Positions 8,099 to 45,440 of a stretch of DNA of 64,000 bases are shown in pieces. Each line of letters opens with the position of its first letter. Within the stretch, counting starts at the first letter, position 1. The notes beneath the pieces are model-generated. The model was given only the letters and a program-made list of their open reading frames with translations. It searched no databases and was not told the origin of the DNA. The position numbers and the translations under genes are program-made. The stretch spans positions 6,662,739-6,726,738 of the forward strand of contig OZ017767.1 of NCBI GenBank assembly GCA_963969345.1. Reading direction: 5' to 3'. The DNA is from Turbatrix aceti. Lineage: Eukaryota; Nematoda; Chromadorea; Rhabditida; Panagrolaimidae.

Positions 8099-9951
8099 AT
8101 GTCGTCGCTGCACTACGACGAGGATTCAAGATCCTCAGCTTCTTCCGGGCCATCAATCGTTTCTCTGACCAAAAATACTCCAACAAATGCGAAGGGAATT
8201 GGATGGTTCATTACAAGTTTTTTTCTCGTCGCGAACAATGCAGGTGTCGGCATCATTTCTCTGCCTCAGGCTACCGTCAAACTTGGACTCGTTTTTGGCA
8301 TTGTTTTTCAAATCGCAGTTGCGATAACTTTTACAATTACTGGATGCATGCTGGGCGAATGCTGGAACGTGCTTCTGAGATCGTATGAAAAGTACCGTAC
8401 ACATTGCCGTAAACCGTATCCCGCGATCGCGGAACACGCCATGGGCATGGTCGCTCACGTCATTCTGTCCATTTCCATCAATTTATCACTTTTTGGCAGC
8501 TGCGTCGTTTTTTTACTTCTCATCGCACAAAATGTTAACGATATTCTGAAATCCATCTTTGACGTTTCGATTAATTACTGTTTGACTATTTTGATTATTT
8601 CTGTTCTCCTGATACCACTTGTGCTTCTGGACACTCCGAAAGATTTCTGGTAAGCTTTAAAAATTTTTTTTATCAAAAAACAATGGATGCACATTTTCAG
8701 GGCCGCTCTGGTCTTCGCAACGGTGTCAACCGTTCTGGCAGTCATCCTGATCTGTGTCGGCGCGATCATAGATTTTGGAACATGCAATCCAGTCATGGAA
8801 CCTGCACATCTTCAATTCAGTGACATGATGGGGAGTCTCGGGACGTTCTTCTTCAGCTTCGCAGGTCACTCCAGTTTTCCGACCATCCAACACGACATGC
8901 GTGAACCTGCGAAATTTTCGAGGAGTGTCGTTATCAACTATATCAGTAAGTCAGTCTGCTGCTCCTGGCAACCCCTTTCACTTTTTTCATTGAAATAACC
9001 AATCGACTTCCGGACTTGGGGTGCACAAAAAACTTGAAGAATGTAGCGATTGGGAGTAATCCAGATTAGCCCGAGGCGCAATCATAGGGACATTTTTGAT
9101 AAGGATAAAAATATGTATGTATGTACATACTAGAAATGAACTTTTAGTTCTAACTATAATGTACACTCCCGTGTGCGTACTTGGATACCTGACATACGGT
9201 AACTCGGTTCGAGACTCGGTCATTACGTCAATTCAAACAAGATGGATCCGTTACACAATCAATATACTCATTACACTGCATTGCTTTTTGGGATTTACGA
9301 TTACGATCAATCCTGTCTGCCAGCAAATTGAGCAGTGGGTCAATGTGCCGCACGGTGAGCAGCGAGCATTTTGATGCATTTTGCACATTGATGAAGTGAA
9401 TATGTTTGTTTGCAGGTTTCAACGCGAAAAAAGTTATCACAAGAGTCGGATTCGTAGCGCTGCTTGTTTTCATCGCGGAAACAATTCCAACGTTCGGTCC
9501 GTTGATGGACCTCGTCGGAGGGTCTTGCATGGCCCTTGCATGCGTCATTCTGCCCTGCGTCTTCTATTATTACCTTTCTACGTGGGAAGAACGTCTCGAC
9601 AATTCAGAAATCAAAAACGATGAACGAATTGCCTTTATCGACATGATTCGTGGCACTTCCACTCCCATGCTCGTGCTTGGAGCTTTAATCTGCGGTTTGT
9701 AAAATTTTTTTTTGCGTGAAACAATTTCATTTTCTGTCAATTTTTAAGCTTTTGGATTGATCGCCGGCGTAATTTCAACGTATTCTGCAGTCCTGGAAAT
9801 AACATCTACCAACTTCCAAATGCCCTGTTACGTCCAAGCCATCCAGGGCAAGCTAAAGACCGAAATCAATCCTATGAACTGCTGTGGTGAGTACCAAAAC
9901 GTAACCATCCTCAGCAACTTCCAATGCCCAAGCGCCAGACCTACGCACTGA
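8099..9951 (+). CDS. Amino-acid transporter, AAAP (Aa_trans) family, copy 2
   Basis: The exons are 8099-8649, 8701-8945, 9148-9354, 9416-9694 and 9749-9951 (494 aa, in phase). The start at 8099 (MSSLHYDEDSRSS) gives a short cytoplasmic head before the first helix (GWFITSFFLVANNAGVGIISLP). An in-frame ATG at 8036 would add 21 residues. The protein matches copy 1 along its length, with shared motifs such as NVLLR, HCRKPYP, GHSSFPTIQHDM and PTFGPLMDL. It ends in a similar Cys-Cys-Gly loop. Introns 2 and 3 are at the same positions and phase as the two introns of copy 1; introns 1 and 4 are absent there. The last acceptor reads TTAAG, not CAG. Substrate unknown. Confidence 0.9.
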
Positions 9952-34061: not shown

Positions 34062-35919
34062 GTCCGGCGAAGGCCTAAAAAAATAAAATCAACCGTCTGG
34101 CGTTGTTTGTTCGTTCGTAATATTGTTCAAAGTTCAAATTCAATCCGAGGGAACTTTTTCGCGTTCACGCGTAATCAAAAAAATCGTATTCAACGAGCGA
34201 GCATGCATGAATTTTGAGGTGAACAAAAAAGTAACAAAAGAACAGTCTCCCACGCATGCATGGAAACACAATAACGAAAAAAAAACAAGTTATTCCACGC
34301 AAACGTAACCTTTACGATCAAAATAAAAAAAAGGAAAAAAAATCAAAATCAATGTACGGAATCAATGAAAATTTGGGGTTAATCGCCGCGTACATAAAAA
34401 TATTGATCGCACAACACAGATTTTTATGAACGGTCAAAGAATAGTCGAAAGCCGATAGTTTCCGGAATTTTAATCATTTTTTTTTCTTTCAAAATGTTAA
34501 AATAAACAAATGAACAATTTTCCGTCCAAGAAGTCTTTCGAAAGCCCCTCAGCTGGGACTCAAACGAACGAACGTGAAAAAGAATAAGAACAACGAACGT
34601 GTCACGCTCGAAGATTGCAAATTGCAATCCCGTTATGCGAGCTGACAGACTGAAACGGAACCCCGCAGCCGTTGGTTGCAACGCGCAATTAGAGCATCGA
34701 TTACACGAAATTCAAAACAGACAACATCAGGAGAAGGAAAAACAGTGTGATCACCGAGAAGATGAAAAAAACAGGAGCGGCGATGGATGACGCCAGTCGA
34801 CGCTGGAAAAAAAACTAAACTACCGAATATTTAGAAGTTTATTCAGGGGGGGAAAAAGAGAGGAAAATATCAGGAATAATACCACCCCTCTCTTCTCTTC
34901 TCCGTCATCGATGAAAGAATGGAATCAGCAGTCAAAAGTCTCCCGCGTGACTCAATCGCTGGGTTGGGCTGAAAATTGGGCGATTTGGGCACGCCACAGG
35001 GGGTTAATTGCACATGCACACAGGCCACACCCTCCCCATGATGACGGCAGCCCGGATTTGAGGACCTCTGGAACACGCAGGGCCGCCGCAGTCGCGCGAA
35101 GTCATTTATTTATTTTCTCACACGTTTTTTTTTTCGACGATCTTTTCTCTTCTCTTCGTCATTGCAATCACAATCGCAGCGCTGCGACGATGACGACGAC
35201 AAAATTTTTCGACCGACGACAACGATGGTAATGGCCTGGCTAAACGCCCTCTCTCTTGCGTATGTCGAATGTCGAATGACTTGTGTTCGTTCGTTTTGTT
35301 CTTACGTTGTCCTCCCCACCTTTCGTGACACACATTGCACCCATCATCACATTGTCACCGTCGTCCCAAAAAGACTCGACTGAGAGGAGTGATCACCGGA
35401 CCAGACCGGTGACACAGAGAGAGAGAAGCGAAGCGATCGTTTGTCCTGTCCTCCTCTTCGGTCATGTCACGGCAGCGAGCGACCGAGCAAGCGAGCGCGC
35501 ACAGCAAGGAGCCTGGCCTGTCTCGGTCGGAGCCCGGGCAGGCCAGGTCGAAGCAAGCAGGTTGAAAAGGAAAGAAAAAAGCAAGCAAAACCTTGGAAAA
35601 CGCCAAATTTGATTTGATTTGTAGAAATAAACGAATGAATGCATCCTGAAAAGAAGAAAAAAAGGCAGGTTCTTACGTGGAAAAGAACCCCGCTCGCGAC
35701 AAGACCAGACCGAGGCCAGTCTGATTGTTGATATACTATCATCACGTGCGTATGCGCGTGCGCATTCTGCTTTGTAGTTTATCTGTGTGAGAATTCATCA
35801 GAGGGATAATAATAGCCAGAAGGCAGACGCATGCGCACGCATTCCCCTGTTGTCGGTCTCGTAGCCACCAGCCTGCGCACTGCATTCACTTTCGCGTCAA
35901 TCGAGCGTGAAAATGCAGT
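34062..35919. other. Intergenic region upstream of VAV and outside the transposon
   Basis: Probably holds the VAV promoter. 35.1-35.6 kb is rich in GACGA/CGACGA and AGCGAGCG repeats that give open frames on both strands, but no domain or splice pattern supports a gene. The last 40 bases (from about 35880) resemble the outer flank of the right transposon arm in inverse orientation (shared GCATTCACTTTC and CAATCGA), so the true transposon edge may lie slightly outside 35920. Confidence 0.4.
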
Positions 35920-36325
35920 CATTCGCGCACATAGTGTTGACTTTGGCAGCTTCGCGCAATGGCATTTTTGAATTGTTAATGACGGCATGGGGGGGGATTA
36001 ATTTGACAAGTCTTGATCTTTCGATTAAGCCATCAACGGCACAAAAATGTTAAGTTTTGCCAAAGATGCAACCCATCCAAAGTTCATTTTTAAATCGTCG
36101 ATTGCGGCCTTTTAGAGCTCTAACAAAACAATCTGGTTAACAGAAAGTTCCATCAGGTTGGTACCAGTCGATTAAGCCAAGTGCCGTTTGTTGAACATCG
36201 AAGAGGACCGAGATTCCTCACAAAAACTGTTTTACCCTATAAAATGTGTATGCGAAATGCTGCTTCGCAAACATCGTTGCAAGTAAGTGTTCTCGAACGG
36301 ATTGTTACGCGCGCGCATTCAAAAA
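35920..36325 (+). repeat. Left terminal inverted repeat of the DNA transposon
   Basis: Reverse complement of 44608-45014. The only differences noticed by eye are the poly-G run (8 versus 9) and the inner edge. It includes a frame that opens with MPFVEHRRGPRFLTK and reads into the transposase, which is why the same start appears in antisense at the other end. Confidence 0.9.
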
Positions 36326-38134
36326 ATAATGAATTCCACATCATGGATTGCTTTTTTTTGCTGTTTTTGGCTTCTGAAAAAAATAGTGAACATTTTCTCC
36401 GAAGTCTTAAACGGATACGAAACTATGCAAAAAGTGAATTTAAAAAATTCGTTGAATTTAAAAGAAGGAACAGTTTTAAAAAAGTTGTCACTGTTATCTT
36501 TGACATGAAAAAAAGACTTTCCAAAGCTCGTCGTGCCCAGTACAAGAAGTTGTCGGAATCCGGTGTTGCTGCAAAGCGTGCGGCGCAAGGTAATCAGTCT
36601 AATCAAGATGATGTTGGGCTACTCGTCGACGCAGAGTCACCTTATGAAGGATCCTTTCCTATTGAAGTAGGAGAAGTCATGGACACCGATCTCCCCGCGT
36701 ATACGGAACAACCTACGGATGAAGAACTTCCGAGTACTGGTATTACTCATCGTCCGTCGTCTACTGTCAATTGGTATGTCCGGTACATGACAACACTGTC
36801 CAAAAATCGGGTGCTCCAAAATCAGGTCACAAAATTAAAGGCCGAATCCCAACATATGAAAGCTGAGATAACAAAGCGGGACATGAAAATCGCAAACTTG
36901 GAAAGTGGTGAAGTTATGGATTCAACGTCTCCGCCTCCTCCTTTGACTTCTACGCCACCTCGTCGGTTACGGCATATTCCTGATCGCGCAACACCTCCTG
37001 GACACCCGCGGATGCTACGAGCACGTACTCGACAAAGAAGATGGAAGAAGTTGACTAATCTGTGCCATCGACTCTTTGGTACAGATATCCAAGAAGTTGT
37101 AGACAGCTGTCATTCCAAGGAGCCTGTTCGTTGCCTCACGGCCGAGGAAGCCGTCCGTCTCGTTTACCGAACGAATATGACGTTTGAAGTGTACGATGCT
37201 CTACATAAACTGAAATTTGGTACGTTAAAATAAAAAAATATATAACTTACAAATTTATTATTTTAAGTGCCCTCCAGAACAGCGTACTATCGAGCTGAAA
37301 AGGAATTAGTCCTGCAAATGGCGATGGAAGAAGACGTGGAGTATGAGTTGTCAAATACAAAAAAAGTCGTCGTCAAAAGCGTTGACATTATCCAAACACT
37401 CAAACTATCTGTCACTCAACTGGATAATATTTTACCACCCGGCATTATCCGAGTAACGATTGGAGGTGATTCCGGTGGAGACGGCGATCTGGCTAGCACC
37501 AAAATATGTGGTTATTTCAATGACTTGCCATCAGGCTGCTCTACAAGTACGATGATGCTACTGGCACTGTTTTTTGACAAAGACGGCAGAGAAATGCTAG
37601 AAAACGTGTTCGGAAGCCTCAACGCCGCTATTGAGAAGCTCCAGACAGAGGGCATTTTGATCAACGGCATCATAAGAAAGTTCAAGTTGTAGGCATTAAA
37701 AGTTTCAAATGTCGAAAAATACAAAAAAATTTCAGCTACCTAAACGGGGACCTCAAGTTTCTAAGTATAGTTCTCGGACACCAAGGACAATCGGCCACTT
37801 GTTTCTGTCATCTTTGCGAAGCCAAGATCGAAACCATCGCCGGAGTTAAAATTCTCATAGATATTGCTCCGTTGAGAACAGCTGAATCCATGCACGATGA
37901 CTACACGAGATCCCAACAAGCTATTCGAGCTTTGAATGGAGGTTCCAACAACGCGACAAAAAAAGGCACTACCCAGGCGTATCGTGAGAATCACTCCGTA
38001 AGTAACTATTATCTGCTGCCTGCGATTCCTTTCGATTGTATCGTTCCGCCGCCGTTGCACACGCTTTCTGGAACCTTTAAGGTTTTATGGGATAAAGCCA
38101 AAGAAGTGAATTCTGATTACACGGACGCAATGAT

Positions 38135-38480
38135 TGTAAGGCCCCCAGAGGCCCTCGAGACACAGTTCTTTACACAACAGTTTATTTGGACGCGATAAAT
38201 AATTGATAACTGATTGTTCACGGACATATATATAGGGATCACAAAACGAGGGGCTAAAGGGGAGGGAGCAGGGAGCAAGTTGTTGACGACGTCCGGCAGC
38301 GGAAGGACCCGTCGCTGCCGGAAACGGCGCTCCGCGTCCCGACGTGTATCGGAAGCGTCGGTCGATCATCGATATCTCCTGAAAAACAACATAATGTTAT
38401 TATTCCCAGGATCGCATGATCCCCCCTTTGCCGGCTGCAGTCATTGCAAGACTACACGACGTGCCTTACAGTGCCTTACA
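38135..38480 (-). repeat. 3' LTR
   Basis: This is the copy downstream of the coding frame. I compared it by eye with 43717-44062 and saw no difference in 346 bases, which implies a very recent insertion or conversion. The end adjoining the body contains GTGCCTTACA twice in tandem. Confidence 0.9.
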
Positions 38481-38495
38481 ACTATCCCCTACCAG
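38481..38495 (-). other. Polypurine-like tract before the 3' LTR
   Basis: On the element's sense strand the bases just before the 3' LTR read GGTAGGGGATAG, the place where a plus-strand priming tract is expected. Purine purity is modest. Confidence 0.5.
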
Positions 38496-38529
38496 AAGAT
38501 TCGTCCCGAATCTTTTGTTATCCAACAAC

Positions 38530-38560
<31 letters not shown>

Positions 38561-38654
38561 TTCAAGATGTTCTGTGCCTTCGCACGTTAGCTATGATCAT
38601 AACCTGCAAAACCCACCTGTCTATAGCCGCTCCAGTTGCTGTGCAAGTCGTGCT

Positions 38655-41600
38655 TCATTGGCTGTTAACGCTAGAGGTGGCGGCCCTGTAAGACCGCGAG
38701 AAGCCATACACATGAAGGTGTGATGCCAGGGGTCTTCCCGTGATAATCGTTCTCCTGCTATGACGATGAGGGAGCAGCGCGCTCTGGTTGATTTCCATTA
38801 GTGCTGCTGCCGCCTGAGTTTCGCTTGGCACGGTTACTGGATGAGCTACGCCCAGCGTCATTTTTTCATAGACCGTTGCATACTCGTCCGAACCATTTAT
38901 CATCATGAGTTTGCCGCACTCCTTTCCCTGAAATGTAAAAGCTGCTGCTATCAGCTGCGCCTTTGGTAGCTCTTTGGGCTCTGCGAGATATAGAGGGGCT
39001 TTTAGGCCGGATCCCATTTTTACCTCGATTACACTGGCAGAATGCGGCGGGATCCTGACTGTCGTCACCGCCATTATCTTGCCCGGCTCATACAAATAAC
39101 CCAGCGGTAGTTCCTGGCCGTGTAGTCTGACCCTCCAATCCGTGTAGTCAAATGTGATGGGTGGCAGCATCCGTAGAGAATCAACTCCTAAAATCACATC
39201 GTGTCTTATGCTGGTGGTGAGACCGTCCGCAAAGCACATTCTGATTTGCGTGCTGTGACTGCCCACCCGGAGAGTGACTACCTTAGTTCCGATTATCCTT
39301 AGCTCATGCCCAGATGCGGTTTCTACTGGTAGTGGTGCGGCATCTAGCTGGCTTTTGCTGACCTGGAACAGATCTAGAAGCTCGGCTGGAGCCAGTGACA
39401 CGCTTGCACCCGTGTCGATGAGCGCTCTGACATTTATTCCATTTACCTTTACCATCACTACTGATTGTGGCAACCGATAGTCATGTGGCAGCGTGTATAC
39501 GGCTTCTCTGGGCGAGTCAGACTTTTTGTTGGTGTTACGATCTTCCTGATCATCCCTCATGAACTGCGCATACCCTGCGTGCTTGTCCTCTTCTTCGCTG
39601 CATCGATCGCAATCCCCATTTTCTGCGCTCACCCTGCCTTTGCTCGTTACGGAGAGAGAAAAAGGAACGCTTTCTTTTCTTAGAACCAAAATATTTTTTT
39701 TAAAGTCTAGTTCGAAAGCAGGCAGAGCAGTCATGCAGTTGACGCCTAGTATGATGTCAACGCCTTCTTTGAAACATGGAAGATCTCCGCCGTGCAAAAA
39801 GATGTGAATGCGCGTGCTGGCAATGTGCACAGCAACTGTCTCCCCTGTCTGTAATGGAATTTGCTCCCCTGTGGCCGTTGTTACGCAATCAGTTGTTTGT
39901 GTGGGTTTGCTTCGAAAAATGCGCGCTACCTTCCTTGACGCGATGCTCATATCCGCTCCCGTGTCAAGCATCGCGCGAAACGTGTGGCCGTTGATCTTTA
40001 CATGAATTATCAGGCGCGCTCCTAAACATAAAACTTCCGGAGGCCACCGTGACGCCGCCTGTCTCCTTTCTTCAGTGGTGACTTCGCGGAGTTCATATCG
40101 CTGACCCCCGCGCTCATTTTGGCTTTGTTGATCCTGAGCTTTGCGCAGAGCGTACGAGAGGGCTACTGCAACCCTGCCATTTAATAAGTAAACTATCGCT
40201 AAGGGAACGATGACGTCGCGTATAAAGAGAAAAGACACCCATAGACAGCATACACACATCCAACACTCCCGGATATCGATCTCCTCTCCGATTAGAAATG
40301 CCCACCAACCTCGACGAACCAGACTTGCTGCCGTGGAGTCCGTTTGTAGGTGTCGGTCGATAGATGAACCCAGTTGCTTCTGTACCTCCGCCTGAACTCT
40401 CGCTTCTCTCAGTGACTGCTCGATGTTGTCGAGTGGCAGAAGAGCTCGTGCTTCAGTCAGTATTAGGTCATGAAACGTTGTTGGTAACGGACCTGTTCCC
40501 AATGCCTCTGCGGTGTGTGCTGGGGTCCACTTCTTGATGGGTAGCTGTCGGTTTGCTCCTGAAATGAGATTAAATTCCTTATCCCTGCCGGGCACCACCC
40601 TCCATGGAGTGGCCAGCTCGCAGTCTACCGTTGTCCTGCGGTGGCTTACAATGCCTGTGACCGTATCCGCATACGCCTGTAGAGTTTGCGATCCCAGGTT
40701 CACCGTTACGGGAAGTTCGAGGGTGCATTCGGTTGTCGCCCGTGGTTGCCACTGTTCTTGTGCTATTGCCTGGCAGGGCCACAATCGCACCGTGTTGGCC
40801 GCCAGCACTTCTGCCTGTACAAATTCTTGCCGAATGAGTCTTCGCACGATCATGGACGGCTGGAGCAACAACGTGCTAAGCATGGCTGTCCAGCCAAAAT
40901 CTCGAGCTTCACATGCCGATCCTGAAAGCCTGATTAGTCTGTTGATCGTCGCTTCATTTACCGCTGCTAGCTGTGCCGCCAACTGCTCCGATTGCACTAG
41001 TCCTGAGCTGCTGCGTTTCGTTCTGGTGGTCAGCACTAGCCGTTTCGCTGCATCCTGTGATATGGCGTACCCTTGATCCGCTACAATGAGCTTCTGACCG
41101 CATTCTTCTATCAGGTGTTCATGCTGAAATGATAATAGGAACTCACCCGTTTCTGTTATCCACGTACGGTTACCCGCAAATCCTCGCCAACTGCCCAGCA
41201 CTTCATACCTACATATCTGGTGTGAGCGTTTCTCCCAGATCAGAACGGCTCCGCTCTCAAGGTGGCATCTGCCATCTTCGATTCTGCACTCTCTCGCATC
41301 ACCGATGACTGTGTGCAGTTGCAGACTGTCCGCTTCGTGCCATATGACAACTTCGTGCGCGAAGCAATTTGTGGCTTCGGTGTAGCGAGTCGTAAAACTC
41401 CCGATGATCGGCCATGGATATTCAAAGTGCAATTGATTTGAAGTTTTAAGTAACTCACCGGTACGTGTCATTTGCCCGCTTGGCGACGTCTTTTTCTTCC
41501 ACATACGTCGGCACTCCTCCTCGTCCAGCGGTAGTGTCTCTTCGGTGATATTTTGCCTGTGTTCATTCTCCAGTGTTGTCCAGTAGCTTGCCCTCTGTCT

Positions 41601-43679
41601 TACGCAGGAGCACATGATGGCTGTGAAGTTTGTCCTTCCAATACTGGGCCTAAAAATCGTGACATCCGTTGGATCCGTGGACCACTGATGTTCGGCCGTG
41701 ATGGGACATCCCAGGGTCTTCGGCAGCCGCATTACTGTCTGCGGGACATCCTTTTGACATAGCATGAGTTGCCCTGAGGCCACCCCTAGCAGACTGCATA
41801 GTATTAACATACAAGTTGCATTCCCCAGTCTGTCGCACCTAATTTTTACCTCTTTCTGCTTTGTGTTGAGCCCTTGCCTGAGCTCGCAGATCGTCATTAC
41901 TCCAGTGTTAAAGTCACCGGCTAGTTGCGCTTCAATTTCTCCAACCAACCTGTCGTTGTGTTGTTTGAGAGCTCCAATGTGTCGCCGTAACCTGTCTTCT
42001 TCGCTCTCTGTTGGTTCCACACTGTTGACCTGTCTGGGTGGTACTGTTTGGGGAGGCTGACCCATGCGAGTGAGGGGCGATCGGGTCTGATTGCTGGCCT
42101 GACCGGGCTGTGGCCCCCGCGGACAGTCTCTCATGATGTGCCCTTGATAGCCACATCTGTAACAAGTTATAACTCTACCCACTTGTCTCCTGGTCGTTTC
42201 GGGCCGTGGTCGAAGGGCATCTTGTAATTCGGTTCGGAGAGTTTCAAGTTGCTTCCGCAAAACGCTCATTTCATCCTGCACGACCTCTGCTACCTGTTGT
42301 GCCGTGTCACGCCCGCCAGAACTGTTGTGGAATTCGAGTTTCGTTGCCAATTCGAGCGCGTTTGCATATGTTGCGGGATTCGCCTGAAGTACTTGCCCGC
42401 GCATCTCGTGAGGTAGTCGTTGGGTGAATTCTTCGTAGAGCCTTTCCTGTATGAATTCGTTCGGCTTCGTGGGAAACGCTCGTTGAACAAGTGTTTCTAA
42501 CTTTTCTGCATAGTCTAGAATTCTCCTACCTGGGGTTAGTGCCGGATATTCGTGAAGTCGTGACAGTGCCGCCTGAGGTGTCTGCAATCTTGCAAACTCG
42601 TTTTTCAAATTTGTGACCGCCGTGTCGACTGTGTTTCTGCGGTCCGCTTGGAGTGCTTCAAAGGTTCTCCTCGCTCGGCCAGTCAGCTTGGATTTTAGGA
42701 AACCAAGTTTTCTCTCCTCTGTCATGTCCGCGTCTGCCGCGTATTCGAGATGGTCTTTCATTCTCGTGGACCACTCTGAAAAATCATCTTCACCGTTACC
42801 GCTGAATGTCGGCAGCGCGCGCTCTGCATGACTCAGCATCCACACGTTTATCGGTGTTGGGGTCACTCGTGCCCCCGCCCTTCTTAACTCACCTTTATCG
42901 GTGCTATGAACTTGAACCGCCCTGTTGTTACCACCACTGTCGTCATCATCACAGCCATCCGATTTATCACCGTCGTCGTCATCACGGCCATCCGTCTTCT
43001 CACCGTCGTCGTCATCACGGCCATCCGTTGCGCCATCTCTAATATGGCCCGCCATGTTGCCCTTGCAACCCTCACTGTCGTCATCACGACTCTCCTCGCC
43101 ACTGCTTCCATCGTGGTCCGTGTCTTCCTGCAACGAATTATTATCCTCATCCTCAAACTCACTGTCGTATTCCGTGTCTTCGACTCGCCCGGCTAGTTTG
43201 TTCTCGATTGCCGTAATTCGTGTCGAGATGTCATCTATTCTGCTTGCCAATTCTCCGAACCGCTGTACCGAGTCGTTCTTATCTTGCTGTAGCGCGCTCG
43301 CTCGGTGATCGAGCCGTGCAACAGCCTCTTTGACTTTTGTCTGGTATTCTTGCACCTTGTCGCACACCGTCTGCCTTATTGCGTCGAACTTGCGATTCCA
43401 AGCAGGTTCAAGTTCGCCCAGTTTCTGCGCGACACCATTGATGGCCGCCTCAGCCTTGTTGATGCTGGCTTGTTGTGTGTCCATGCGGTCGGTGATTTCG
43501 ATCAAAGCGGTGTTGAGGGCTCCTCGCCTCTCCTCTGAGGTTTCCCTCAGTGCCCTGAAAGTGTTTTCCACCAACCTGTACACACTGCGTGCCGCATCCT
43601 TCACTTGTTTGGCCGTGGCGCTCTTGTCCTCGGATGTGCCACGGAATACTTGTTCCAGGCTTTCGGTCAGGGTTCCCAT
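38655..43679 (-). CDS. Retroelement polyprotein: Gag, envelope-like glycoprotein, tandem retropepsins
   Basis: The open frame begins at 43745; residues are counted from there (1696 in all), and the likely start is M23 (43679). A coiled-coil head (23-200) is followed by Asp/Gly-rich repeats (about 205-290) and a retrotransposon-gag capsid region (about 300-470). A CCHC zinc knuckle (CYRCGYQGHIMRDCP) lies near 527. From about 640 the chain looks like a membrane glycoprotein: a hydrophobic signal-like segment (ATCMLILCSLLGVASG), many cysteines, N-glycosylation sites, a furin-type RTKR at about 908, and one membrane segment near 1160-1190. Two aspartic protease domains follow, with LDTGAD...ILGVNC near 1260 and IDTGAS...ILGVDS near 1442. 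A linker of the kind that precedes reverse transcriptase comes next, then a stop. Three in-frame GGTGAGTT donor-like sites (about 42893, 41455 and 41145) suggest spliced products. Confidence 0.8.
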   Translation of the reverse strand: MGTLTESLEQVFRGTSEDKSATAKQVKDAARSVYRLVENTFRALRETSEERRGALNTALIEITDRMDTQQASINKAEAAINGVAQKLGELEPAWNRKFDAIRQTVCDKVQEYQTKVKEAVARLDHRASALQQDKNDSVQRFGELASRIDDISTRITAIENKLAGRVEDTEYDSEFEDEDNNSLQEDTDHDGSSGEESRDDDSEGCKGNMAGHIRDGATDGRDDDDGEKTDGRDDDDGDKSDGCDDDDSGGNNRAVQVHSTDKGELRRAGARVTPTPINVWMLSHAERALPTFSGNGEDDFSEWSTRMKDHLEYAADADMTEERKLGFLKSKLTGRARRTFEALQADRRNTVDTAVTNLKNEFARLQTPQAALSRLHEYPALTPGRRILDYAEKLETLVQRAFPTKPNEFIQERLYEEFTQRLPHEMRGQVLQANPATYANALELATKLEFHNSSGGRDTAQQVAEVVQDEMSVLRKQLETLRTELQDALRPRPETTRRQVGRVITCYRCGYQGHIMRDCPRGPQPGQASNQTRSPLTRMGQPPQTVPPRQVNSVEPTESEEDRLRRHIGALKQHNDRLVGEIEAQLAGDFNTGVMTICELRQGLNTKQKEVKIRCDRLGNATCMLILCSLLGVASGQLMLCQKDVPQTVMRLPKTLGCPITAEHQWSTDPTDVTIFRPSIGRTNFTAIMCSCVRQRASYWTTLENEHRQNITEETLPLDEEECRRMWKKKTSPSGQMTRTGELLKTSNQLHFEYPWPIIGSFTTRYTEATNCFAHEVVIWHEADSLQLHTVIGDARECRIEDGRCHLESGAVLIWEKRSHQICRYEVLGSWRGFAGNRTWITETGEFLLSFQHEHLIEECGQKLIVADQGYAISQDAAKRLVLTTRTKRSSSGLVQSEQLAAQLAAVNEATINRLIRLSGSACEARDFGWTAMLSTLLLQPSMIVRRLIRQEFVQAEVLAANTVRLWPCQAIAQEQWQPRATTECTLELPVTVNLGSQTLQAYADTVTGIVSHRRTTVDCELATPWRVVPGRDKEFNLISGANRQLPIKKWTPAHTAEALGTGPLPTTFHDLILTEARALLPLDNIEQSLREARVQAEVQKQLGSSIDRHLQTDSTAASLVRRGWWAFLIGEEIDIRECWMCVCCLWVSFLFIRDVIVPLAIVYLLNGRVAVALSYALRKAQDQQSQNERGGQRYELREVTTEERRQAASRWPPEVLCLGARLIIHVKINGHTFRAMLDTGADMSIASRKVARIFRSKPTQTTDCVTTATGEQIPLQTGETVAVHIASTRIHIFLHGGDLPCFKEGVDIILGVNCMTALPAFELDFKKNILVLRKESVPFSLSVTSKGRVSAENGDCDRCSEEEDKHAGYAQFMRDDQEDRNTNKKSDSPREAVYTLPHDYRLPQSVVMVKVNGINVRALIDTGASVSLAPAELLDLFQVSKSQLDAAPLPVETASGHELRIIGTKVVTLRVGSHSTQIRMCFADGLTTSIRHDVILGVDSLRMLPPITFDYTDWRVRLHGQELPLGYLYEPGKIMAVTTVRIPPHSASVIEVKMGSGLKAPLYLAEPKELPKAQLIAAAFTFQGKECGKLMMINGSDEYATVYEKMTLGVAHPVTVPSETQAAAALMEINQSALLPHRHSRRTIITGRPLASHLHVYGFSRSYRAATSSVNSQ

Positions 43680-43696
43680 CTCACGGTGGATCTTTA

Positions 43697-43714
43697 ACCA
43701 TTCGCTGCTACCAG
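43697..43714 (-). other. Primer-binding site, initiator tRNA-Met-like
   Basis: Two bases after the 5' LTR the minus strand reads TGGTAGCAGCGAATGGTT. The 3' end of eukaryotic initiator tRNA-Met would pair with TGGTAGCAG-GGATGG, so most of the 16-18 positions match, including the first nine. The match and position make this a good primer-binding site. Confidence 0.75.
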
Positions 43715-43716
43715 AT

Positions 43717-44062
43717 TGTAAGGCCCCCAGAGGCCCTCGAGACACAGTTCTTTACACAACAGTTTATTTGGACGCGATAAATAATTGATAACTGATTGTT
43801 CACGGACATATATATAGGGATCACAAAACGAGGGGCTAAAGGGGAGGGAGCAGGGAGCAAGTTGTTGACGACGTCCGGCAGCGGAAGGACCCGTCGCTGC
43901 CGGAAACGGCGCTCCGCGTCCCGACGTGTATCGGAAGCGTCGGTCGATCATCGATATCTCCTGAAAAACAACATAATGTTATTATTCCCAGGATCGCATG
44001 ATCCCCCCTTTGCCGGCTGCAGTCATTGCAAGACTACACGACGTGCCTTACAGTGCCTTACA
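43717..44062 (-). repeat. 5' LTR
   Basis: This is the copy upstream of the coding frame. The long open frame actually starts inside it (an ATG at 43745), but translation from there would run through the primer-binding site, so the ATG at 43679 is the better start for Gag. Confidence 0.9.
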
Positions 44063-44607
44063 TGATGACAAAGTGCCACTCGAAGCTATCTATGCCTAGC
44101 CGTGAATTTTCTGGACGGGATGGATCAACAATGATAAAAGAGATAGCTAAGGATGATAGCCCCAACGTTCCTTATAAGCAATTATTTGTCATGCTTCGAG
44201 AAATCGAAAAGTACGCAGAATCAAGAACTTATTTGGAGCATGAGATCGACGAACTCGAGATGTTGATCGAAAAATTCTGCATCGAAGCTGAACAAAATAA
44301 GATCAAGTACACTCCGAAGATTCACTTGCTTCGTCGTCACGTGGTGCCGTTTATTCGTCTTCATGGATCCTGGTCAAAGTTCACGGAGCAAGGCTTAGAA
44401 GCCATGCATGCGATAGTCGCACGTATTATGAGGAGAGTTCCTCGCACAAGGATCGGAGGCATCACGAGAGCCGTCAACTTCGTTATGAAGCGAATAATTG
44501 GCCGTGGCATTATTGAGCGCCAATGTCTGTCACAAGAATAAAAGAATGTTGTCTGTATCACAAAACTTCAACAAACAAGAGCAGCTTGTAAAAAATTTCT
44601 TGCAAAA

Positions 44608-45014
44608 TTTTTGAATGCGCGCGCGTAACAATCCGTTCGAGAACACTTACTTGCAACGATGTTTGCGAAGCAGCATTTCGCATACACATTTTATAGGGTA
44701 AAACAGTTTTTGTGAGGAATCTCGGTCCTCTTCGATGTTCAACAAACGGCACTTGGCTTAATCGACTGGTACCAACCTGATGGAACTTTCTGTTAACCAG
44801 ATTGTTTTGTTAGAGCTCTAAAAGGCCGCAATCGACGATTTAAAAATGAACTTTGGATGGGTTGCATCTTTGGCAAAACTTAACATTTTTGTGCCGTTGA
44901 TGGCTTAATCGAAAGATCAAGACTTGTCAAATTAATCCCCCCCCCATGCCGTCATTAACAATTCAAAAATGCCATTGCGCGAAGCTGCCAAAGTCAACAC
45001 TATGTGCGCGAATG
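44608..45014 (-). repeat. Right terminal inverted repeat of the DNA transposon
   Basis: Reverse complement of the left arm, ending GTGCGCGAATG at 45014. It lies about 430 bases upstream of the PSME4 start codon, so the transposon now forms the distal promoter region of that gene. Confidence 0.9.
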
Positions 45015-45440
45015 AACGTCCTCATTTTTTTGTTCGATTGTCGCAAAATAAGGGGAAAGTGAATGCTGTGCCTGCGCCCTTTTCGCCAAGCGCATTTTTT
45101 CTCTCTCTTACACCCTCCGCGATTCGACAGCTCTCTTTTATCATCATTTTTTTTTACAAACACAAAAAAAGTTCAATCAATCGTGTTGTAGTCCTTGTTT
45201 TTGGCCAAGATTTACATGCCTTGTTGTTTTCAGTTGTTTTCTAGTGTGGAGTGAACGCAGCCAGTTCATCCACCGTTAAATTCTTCAAACTGGTAAGTTT
45301 TTGGATTTTTGAGGGAAAAATATTCGTCATCATCATATTTTTCTTTTGAGGCATCCGACGACAGTGATTCCGAGTTCGATTGCTCCCTTACCGACACCGG
45401 CACCGAAGATGGCGGCGAAGGGGGCGATTACGATGGAACC
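45015..45440. other. PSME4 upstream region with a probable non-coding first exon
   Basis: A GTAAGT donor at about 45293 follows a stretch with no ATG, which suggests a 5' leader exon. The acidic reading frame from about 45350 to the chosen ATG (rich in Asp, Ser and Glu) is open and in frame with PSME4, so the true N-terminus could be longer if an upstream start exists. Confidence 0.45.

What the first reader, a model, noticed from the sequence alone, without database searches (positions are those of the whole stretch)
38655..43679. Retroelement polyprotein with an envelope-like glycoprotein between Gag and protease
In known LTR elements and retroviruses, env lies after pol. Here a single uninterrupted frame runs Gag, CCHC knuckle, a glycoprotein-like block with signal-like segment, cysteines, glycosylation sites, furin-type RTKR and membrane anchor, and then two retropepsins. 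The order and the fusion in one frame are seen directly. That the middle block is an entry-type glycoprotein is inference from its features; its family is unknown. It would be an unusual, perhaps undescribed, element architecture.
Basis: partly seen in the sequence, partly recalled or inferred. Interest (0 to 1): 0.88.

Follow-up and report, generated by a model that had tools for sequence, protein, structure and literature searches.

The report
Worm retroelement with built-in envelope protein
In a nematode genome, a family of virus-like jumping genes carries a viral-type membrane-fusion glycoprotein in the middle of its single long protein, between the shell protein and the enzymes, whereas retroviruses normally keep it behind the enzymes.

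Summary
Confirmed, and not a rearrangement. The 1,696-codon minus-strand frame (38655-43745; ATG at 43679) lies in a young LTR element (identical 346-bp LTRs, PBS, 4-bp target duplication) of a nematode genome. It reads Gag, CCHC, glycoprotein, two retropepsins. This copy lacks RT-RNaseH-integrase; its last ~44 codons are an out-of-frame piece of a helicase gene. The same genome holds a diverse family with the same order in single frames of about 2,100-2,760 aa: Gag-CCHC-glycoprotein-protease-RT-RNaseH-integrase. Of 30 RT matches with a glycoprotein within 6 kb, 29 have it 5' of RT; the exception is a nested insertion. In the one pair measurable throughout, glycoprotein dN/dS (0.05) is like RT's (0.04). 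The block belongs to a class III fusion-protein family: Pfam Monjiviricetes_fusion matches 7 of 9 relatives (best 2.7e-18), and PDB searches return mainly herpesvirus glycoprotein B. The window's own block has no direct hit but is homologous to relatives that do (hhalign E 2.7e-38). Ordinary Ty3-type elements without it coexist there. Likely mechanism (inferred): an internal signal sequence threads the block into the ER; signal peptidase, furin and protease cut it out. Unexpected extra: a second ORF for a UPF1/SEN1-like helicase. Expression, fusion activity and fold are untested.

The parts
43717..44062 (-). 5' LTR (TGTAAGGC...CTTACA), 346 bp
   Evidence: direct repeat, 100% identical to the 3' LTR
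38135..38480 (-). 3' LTR, 346 bp
44063..44066 (-). target-site duplication ATCA, 5' side
   Evidence: flanks read
38131..38134 (-). target-site duplication ATCA, 3' side
   Evidence: flanks read
43698..43713 (-). primer-binding-site-like sequence TGGTAGCAGCGAATGG, 3 bases after the 5' LTR
   Evidence: tRNA not identified
38655..43679 (-). open frame from first ATG to stop (Gag-CCHC-glycoprotein-PR-PR)
42294..42725 (-). Gag capsid-like region (aa 341-484)
   Evidence: Pfam Ty3_capsid 3.8e-4, Retrotrans_gag 1.4e-3, both below Pfam's cut-off; PNMA is above its cut-off in 3 of 5 relatives scanned, Retrotrans_gag in 2 of 5
42120..42167 (-). CCHC zinc knuckle (aa 527-542)
   Evidence: Pfam zf-CCHC 1.4e-4, over cut-off
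41754..41828 (-). internal signal-like hydrophobic segment (aa 640-664)
   Evidence: hydropathy; same place in the alignment of 7 members, over the threshold in 6 of 7 (L033 below)
40146..41810 (-). glycoprotein block (aa 646-1200)
   Evidence: 16 Cys invariant in 7 members; homologous over 537 columns to relatives that match Monjiviricetes_fusion
41013..41024 (-). furin-type site RTKR (aa 908-911)
   Evidence: at the same alignment place RxKR or RxRR in 5 of 7 members and RxxR in the other 2
40620..41012 (-). class III / gB-like core after the basic site (aa 912-1042)
   Evidence: invariant C, P, R, A, C, C, P-V, C in 9 sequences; profile hits gB structures
40146..40265 (-). membrane-anchor segment (aa 1161-1200)
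39729..40010 (-). first retropepsin (aa 1246-1339)
   Evidence: Pfam RVP 1.3e-8
39171..39455 (-). second retropepsin (aa 1431-1525)
   Evidence: Pfam gag-asp_proteas 5.1e-18; 29% identical to the first, E 2e-13
38621..38788 (-). 3' end of a UPF1/SEN1-like SF1 helicase gene behind the deletion junction (out of frame with the polyprotein in this copy)
   Evidence: same tail in L021 and a related one in L023 match Pfam AAA_12 (2.6e-5, 1.1e-4, both below the cut-off)

Best explanation
The window holds a pol-deleted copy of a young nematode Ty3/gypsy-type endogenous retrovirus-like element whose single polyprotein is ordered Gag - CCHC - class III fusion glycoprotein - protease(s) - RT - RNase H - integrase. 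Shown by sequence: the order, the single frame, recurrence in several diverged subfamilies with identical LTRs, purifying selection on the block, and its relation to the Monjiviricetes/gB class III fusion-protein family. Inferred mechanism: ribosomes make Gag in the cytosol, the hydrophobic segment at aa ~640-664 works as an internal signal sequence, the ectodomain is threaded into the ER, the segment at aa ~1161-1200 stops transfer so that protease and pol stay cytosolic; signal peptidase frees Gag, the element's protease frees the glycoprotein tail from pol, and furin cuts at the RTKR to give a receptor-binding and a fusion subunit. The product would coat budding particles and let the element pass between cells or animals. 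The subfamily also encodes, after integrase, an SF1 helicase (UPF1/SEN1-like) that may act on its own RNA.
For: Frame and domains. 42 matches to the block in the own genome, 19 of 42 in frames of at least 2,100 aa (counts are lower bounds). Five of the 16 fetched polyprotein frames were scanned by Pfam; all five have RT, RNase H and integrase behind the protease. LTR pairs in 10 of 17 fetched stretches, each 100% identical over the repeat found. Position: 29 of 30 RT matches with a block within 6 kb have it 5'. Family: PF24664 in 4 of 7 whole blocks, 7 of 9 core segments, 31 places in the own genome, 30 over cut-off, 0 of 14 control genomes; gB in PDB; hhalign window group against five others prob 99.95, E 2.7e-38. 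Selection: dN/dS 0.052 glycoprotein, 0.037 RT-RNaseH, 0.100 Gag for the pair L028-L030. Two GP-less Ty3-type elements of 1,423 and 1,483 aa in the same genome show the ordinary order. Nematode host: 145 exact SL1 sequences, 0 in the reversed control.
Against: The window's own block hits neither Pfam nor PDB by itself, nor anything in the 5.8-billion protein search, where only the ~8,000 best word-sharing candidates were scored; the class III assignment passes through relatives, and the window group against the two most gB-like relatives alone is weak (hhalign E 0.058, probability under 1%). PDB E-values are individually marginal, and in the profile search a syntaxin ranks third among the gB hits (E 0.0099). 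No structure model was obtained. No RNA or protein data: processing, topology and fusion are inference. A fused Gag-Env-Pol gives equal amounts of all products, unlike known retroviruses. Two hydrophobic peaks per frame are common by chance, and the signal peak of L033 and the anchor peak of L025 fall under the threshold used. Synonymous sites are saturated in most pairs, so dN/dS rests mainly on one pair.
Confidence: 0.8

Rival explanations
1. The glycoprotein is not made from the polyprotein but from a separate spliced or internally initiated RNA, as Env is in retroviruses; the open frame across it only reflects compact packing.
For: Donor-like words lie before the block in 4 of 7 members (WIN, L023, L027, L030); acceptor-like words between CCHC and block in 2 of 7 (L023, L025); Met codons between CCHC and the hydrophobic segment in 6 of 7 (all).
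Against: No acceptor-like word (TTTCAG, TTTTAG, TTGCAG, TATCAG) between CCHC and the block in 5 of 7 members, the window included; the 19 long frames carry no stop after the block, so a separate RNA would still encode protease and pol unless spliced again.
Confidence: 0.25
2. The block descends from a class III fusion protein but no longer serves entry: it is a membrane module for particle budding or for transfer between cells inside the gonad, in an element that is inherited only vertically.
For: All copies seen are in one genome; no free relatives were found in IMG/VR or in the protein search (limited to word-sharing candidates). Cer1 capsids of C. elegans are described in germ cells (PMC3315495, passages).
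Against: Conserved ectodomain cysteines, basic cleavage site and core and dN/dS like RT suggest the whole fusion machine is kept.
Confidence: 0.25
3. The order is an accident: an env or foreign gene inserted or rearranged into one element, later spread.
For: This copy is itself rearranged (pol deleted).
Against: At least seven groups (RT 34-60% identical to the L025 query) share the position; GP and RT trees branch in largely, not wholly, the same order; purifying selection.
Confidence: 0.02
4. The block is an unrelated mucin- or Gag-like spacer with look-alike features.
For: No direct database hit for the window's own sequence, and none in PDB for alignment A1 (two chance hits).
Against: Full-length homology to members that match PF24664 and gB.
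Confidence: 0.04

Closest known systems
Atlas virus, Ancylostoma ceylanicum (PMC9094657; passages read)
   Same: nematode endogenous retrovirus-like element, identical LTRs, one uninterrupted polyprotein of 2,828 aa that includes a fusion glycoprotein related to that of another virus group
   Different: order Gag-Pol-Env with Env last; Env is class II (phlebovirus-like); BEL/Pao RT
Tas element of Ascaris (mentioned in passages of PMC9094657 and PMC7642597; element itself not examined here)
   Same: nematode retroelement whose Env is said to be weakly like herpesvirus gB, i.e. class III (PMC9094657)
   Different: BEL/Pao; env-like protein downstream of the polyprotein (PMC7642597, which in the same sentence assigns the herpesvirus-like Env to Cer-7 and the phlebovirus-like one to Tas)
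Anakin, Pao elements of mosquitoes with chuvirus glycoproteins (PMC7642597; abstract and passages)
   Same: retroelement with a chuvirus-type glycoprotein, highly similar LTRs
   Different: insect BEL/Pao; a place between Gag and protease is not mentioned in the passages seen
Cer1 of C. elegans (PMC3315495, PMC10309623; passages read)
   Different: no recognised env; [quoted passage not shown]
MDG1-group sORF2 (PMC11952523, a preprint; passages read)
   Same: fusogen-like protein encoded 5' of pol in LTR retrotransposons
   Different: 63-107 aa FAST-like protein in a separate ORF upstream of gag (in some Lepidoptera downstream of pol)
Bdelloid LTR elements with captured ORF3s (PMC5408684; passages read)
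   Same: captured env-like and enzyme ORFs
   Different: ORF3 lies after pol; the only mention of a helicase found in that text is a reference title

Membership tests
LTR retroelement | two LTRs, PBS, target-site duplication | tested here: met
   346-bp LTRs 100% identical, TGGTAGCAGCGA after the 5' LTR, TSD ATCA
Ty3/gypsy (Metaviridae) | domain order PR-RT-RNaseH-IN | tested here: met
   in 5 of 5 relatives scanned; not in the window copy, which has lost RT-RNaseH-IN
Ty3/gypsy (Metaviridae) | RT within the Ty3 clade of a reference tree | not tested
   no reference RTs were on hand; only an unrooted tree of 9 RTs of this genome
Ty3/gypsy (Metaviridae) | Ty3-like capsid | tested here: inconclusive
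   Ty3_capsid / Retrotrans_gag below cut-off in the window; in 5 relatives PNMA over cut-off in 3, Retrotrans_gag in 2
Class III fusion glycoprotein (Monjiviricetes / gB type) | sequence profile match | tested here: met
   7 of 9 members, best 2.7e-18; window copy itself: no match
Class III fusion glycoprotein (Monjiviricetes / gB type) | class III fold | not tested
Class III fusion glycoprotein (Monjiviricetes / gB type) | membrane fusion activity | not testable with these tools
   needs experiment
Retrovirus with canonical gag-pol-env order | env 3' of pol | tested here: not met
   29 of 30 GP-RT pairs have the block 5' of RT, the other is a nested insertion
SF1 helicase, UPF1/SEN1-like (second ORF of the subfamily) | Walker A N-terminal domain and C-terminal motif VI | tested here: inconclusive
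   N-terminal part: AAA_30 4e-8 over cut-off and GAGKT in L044; C-terminal part: AAA_12 2.6e-5 in L021, 1.1e-4 in L023, both under the cut-off; 10 PDB hits of the L023 tail are 5 UPF1, 3 RNA-helicase-like, 2 SEN1, E 0.12-1.6. No copy with both ends in one frame was seen

The most novel reading that the evidence does not exclude
A deep lineage of nematode retroelements in which the fusion glycoprotein is an integral middle domain of the polyprotein, released by ER insertion through an internal signal sequence (as in alpha- and flavivirus polyproteins) rather than by splicing; that is, a second, independent way of building an infectious retrovirus, with a UPF1/SEN1-like helicase added in one branch to protect or move the genomic RNA.
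Probability: 0.4. Interest if true: 0.9.

Novelty: new variant of a known kind. Interest (0 to 1): 0.8.

Why it matters
Retroviruses are thought to arise when an LTR retrotransposon picks up a foreign env behind pol and expresses it by splicing. This family shows a stable, diversified and recently active alternative: a class III glycoprotein fused between Gag and protease. It makes testable how Gag, Env and Pol can be made in equal amounts from one polyprotein, and whether ER insertion can replace splicing. A helicase of the UPF1/SEN1 type in a retroelement would be a new accessory function.

Tried and rejected
Rejected: rearranged single copy (many groups, same order); env after pol in some copies (the single case is a nested insertion); the 3' end of the window frame as part of the polyprotein (it is an out-of-frame helicase tail). 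Led nowhere: three searches of 5.8 billion proteins, IMG/VR scan, PDB with the window block or with alignment A1 (two chance hits). The splice-signal scan gave nothing shared by all members. RT tree: L025 sits differently in RT and GP trees at an open fork, and L042 is a long branch.

Full report
What was checked. The frame is on the minus strand, 38655-43745, 1,696 aa, with the first ATG at 43679. It lies in an LTR element: LTRs 43717-44062 and 38135-38480, 346 bp, identical; TGGTAGCAGCGAATGG three bases inside the 5' LTR; target-site duplication ATCA. Pfam finds a weak Ty3-type capsid, a CCHC knuckle, then nothing for 700 aa, then two retropepsins. The two retropepsins are 29% identical (E 2e-13) and both keep D-T-G-A. 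The middle part has a signal-like segment (640-664), 19 cysteines, RTKR (908-911) and an anchor-like segment (1161-1200).

What this copy lacks. Nothing between the second protease and the 3' LTR resembles RT. The tail after ~38789 is the 3' end of another gene: in the sister insertion L021 it reads in frame as an SF1 helicase end (AAA_12, 2.6e-5, under the cut-off). The window copy and L021 are 99.4% identical over 5,924 aligned positions, but their junctions differ, so they are probably two separate pol deletions. A third copy (L022 with L044), cut at its 5' side by a run of 200 N, has CCHC, block, two proteases, RT, RNase H and integrase, and then a frame of at least 865 aa with a Walker A motif (AAA_30, 4e-8), followed by the same 3' tail and LTR; no second half of the helicase was recognised in it, so it too looks shortened. 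L023, a pol-less relative (56.5% identical over 1,412 aa), ends in a related helicase motif (AAA_12 1.1e-4; 10 PDB hits: 5 UPF1, 3 RNA-helicase-like, 2 SEN1, E 0.12-1.6). So this subfamily most likely carried a UPF1/SEN1-like helicase after integrase. The window's LTR has 14 matches: five near-identical ones from these three insertions, and nine others of 69-99% identity, mostly partial.

Relatives in the genome. The host is a nematode: 145 exact SL1 sequences, none in the control; 59.9 Mb in 28 contigs; species not identified. The block (560 aa) has 42 matches; 19 of 42 lie in frames of 2,126-2,762 aa. Seventeen stretches were fetched; 10 of 17 show an LTR pair, each identical over the repeat found. 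Of 16 polyprotein frames taken from them (L024 left out, its stretch cuts the frame), five were scanned with Pfam and all five have protease, RT, RNase H and integrase after the CCHC and the block. The 16 and the window fall into about seven groups; block identity between far groups is 22-27%. Pfam PF24664 adds four places of further groups (two of them scanned); in one of them (L042) protease and RT lie in different, overlapping frames.

Position of the block. An RT query gave 64 matches. Thirty have a block on the same strand within 6 kb; 29 of 30 have it 5' of RT (two blocks are each paired with two RT pieces, so rows exceed elements). The one 3' case is an ordinary Ty3-type element, 1,483 aa, sitting inside a block-bearing element. 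Thirty-four RT matches have no block by this test. Two elements without block were read, one of these 34 and the nested one: Gag-CCHC-protease-RT-integrase in frames of 1,423 and 1,483 aa. Eighteen of 47 block places have no RT within 6 kb (among them the pol-less window copy, L021 and L023, short fragments, and five frames of 518-810 aa that were not read).

What the block is. Four of seven blocks match Pfam PF24664 Monjiviricetes_fusion, best 7.5e-10; with the segment after the basic site, 7 of 9, best 2.7e-18, and Glycoprotein_B in 2 of 9. The own genome has 31 PF24664 places, 30 over cut-off; 14 control genomes have none. Against PDB, one relative gave 20 hits, all herpesvirus gB (E 0.03-0.68; that BALF4 and GP110 are gB is recalled); the 9-member profile gave 26 hits, 19 gB (best 0.0076; ORF8 counted as gB from recall), while the other seven are syntaxin (third, E 0.0099), GCN4 and unrelated proteins. 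The window's block itself matches nothing directly, but the window group aligns with five members of other groups over 537 columns (hhalign E 2.7e-38); against the two gB-like members alone the score is weak (E 0.058), while the intermediate group reaches 1.2e-4 (probability 55%). Sixteen cysteines are invariant in seven whole blocks, and nine residues, four of them cysteines, in the core of all nine. That gB and the Monjiviricetes glycoproteins are class III is recalled, and stated for gB in PMC9094657 (passage).

Selection and history. For L028-L030, dN/dS is 0.052 in the block, 0.037 in RT-RNaseH and 0.100 in Gag CA-NC; synonymous differences are near saturation (pS about 0.6). Of six block pairs three gave a finite ratio (0.052, 0.071, 0.113), the others were saturated. 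In an unrooted RT tree of nine, the seven block-bearing elements stand apart from the two without (100/100), with a long branch (L042) as caution; the block tree has the same main order, except that L025 sits differently at an open fork.

Mechanism. The simplest reading is co-translational insertion from an internal signal segment, with the anchor segment returning the chain to the cytosol before the protease; signal peptidase, the element's protease and furin would then give Gag, glycoprotein subunits and Pol. No acceptor-like word precedes the block in 5 of 7 members, and no stop follows it in the long frames, which argues against a spliced env RNA but does not exclude it. None of these steps was observed.

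Known relatives and novelty. Atlas virus has all three genes in one frame but Env last and class II (PMC9094657, passages). Tas and mosquito Pao elements carry gB-like or chuvirus-type glycoproteins (PMC9094657, PMC7642597, passages). Cer1 has its extra protein after pol (PMC10309623, passages). Ten full-text searches of the open PMC library turned up no Gag-Env-Pol LTR element and no LTR element with a helicase in what was listed (one search listed 20 of 60 papers; two searches returned none). Subscription papers, Repbase and most preprints were not searchable, so absence from print is not shown.

Noticed in passing
L044:3702-6299 (-), L021:3154-3420 (-), L023:9199-9414 (+), window 38621-38788 (-): The window subfamily carries a second ORF between integrase and 3' LTR encoding a UPF1/SEN1-like SF1 helicase; a further 43%-identical match in a 976-aa frame is at C2:1764547-1766358.
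   Followed up: partly
L025:153-174 (-) and 8505-8526 (-): The LTRs of the L025 element contain an exact SL1 spliced-leader sequence, sense strand, at base 496 of 574 in both LTRs (also near or in several sister copies). The element's RNA may have been trans-spliced, and the leader copied into both LTRs.
   Followed up: partly
window 39171-40010 (-); L025 aa ~1376-1620: Two tandem retropepsins, both with the D-T-G-A motif, in two subfamilies; L027, L028 and L033 show one. They could work as a single-chain dimer.
   Followed up: partly
window 35919-45015: The retroelement sits inside a DNA element with long terminal inverted repeats (pieces of 337 and 78 nt, each 100% complementary); the ORF at 36181-37233 has only a sub-threshold Pfam match (DUF2711, 0.0082).
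   Followed up: partly
L046: A GP-less Ty3-type element (1,483 aa) inserted into a block-bearing element, whose gag and glycoprotein pieces lie on either side.
   Followed up: yes
L022/L044 (C5:4728245-4737372): The third copy of the subfamily lies within a Ser/Thr-rich minisatellite that is open on both strands for about 1,000 codons, next to a 200-base run of N.
   Followed up: no
L038, L039: Two further block-bearing elements have a long Thr-rich, mucin-like stretch inside the glycoprotein before the gB-like core.
   Followed up: partly
C2:6504182, C1:6054805, C6:3549263, C5:9985524, C6:3400103 of G000: Five block matches in frames of 518-810 aa with no RT match within 6 kb: solo glycoproteins or other elements.
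   Followed up: no
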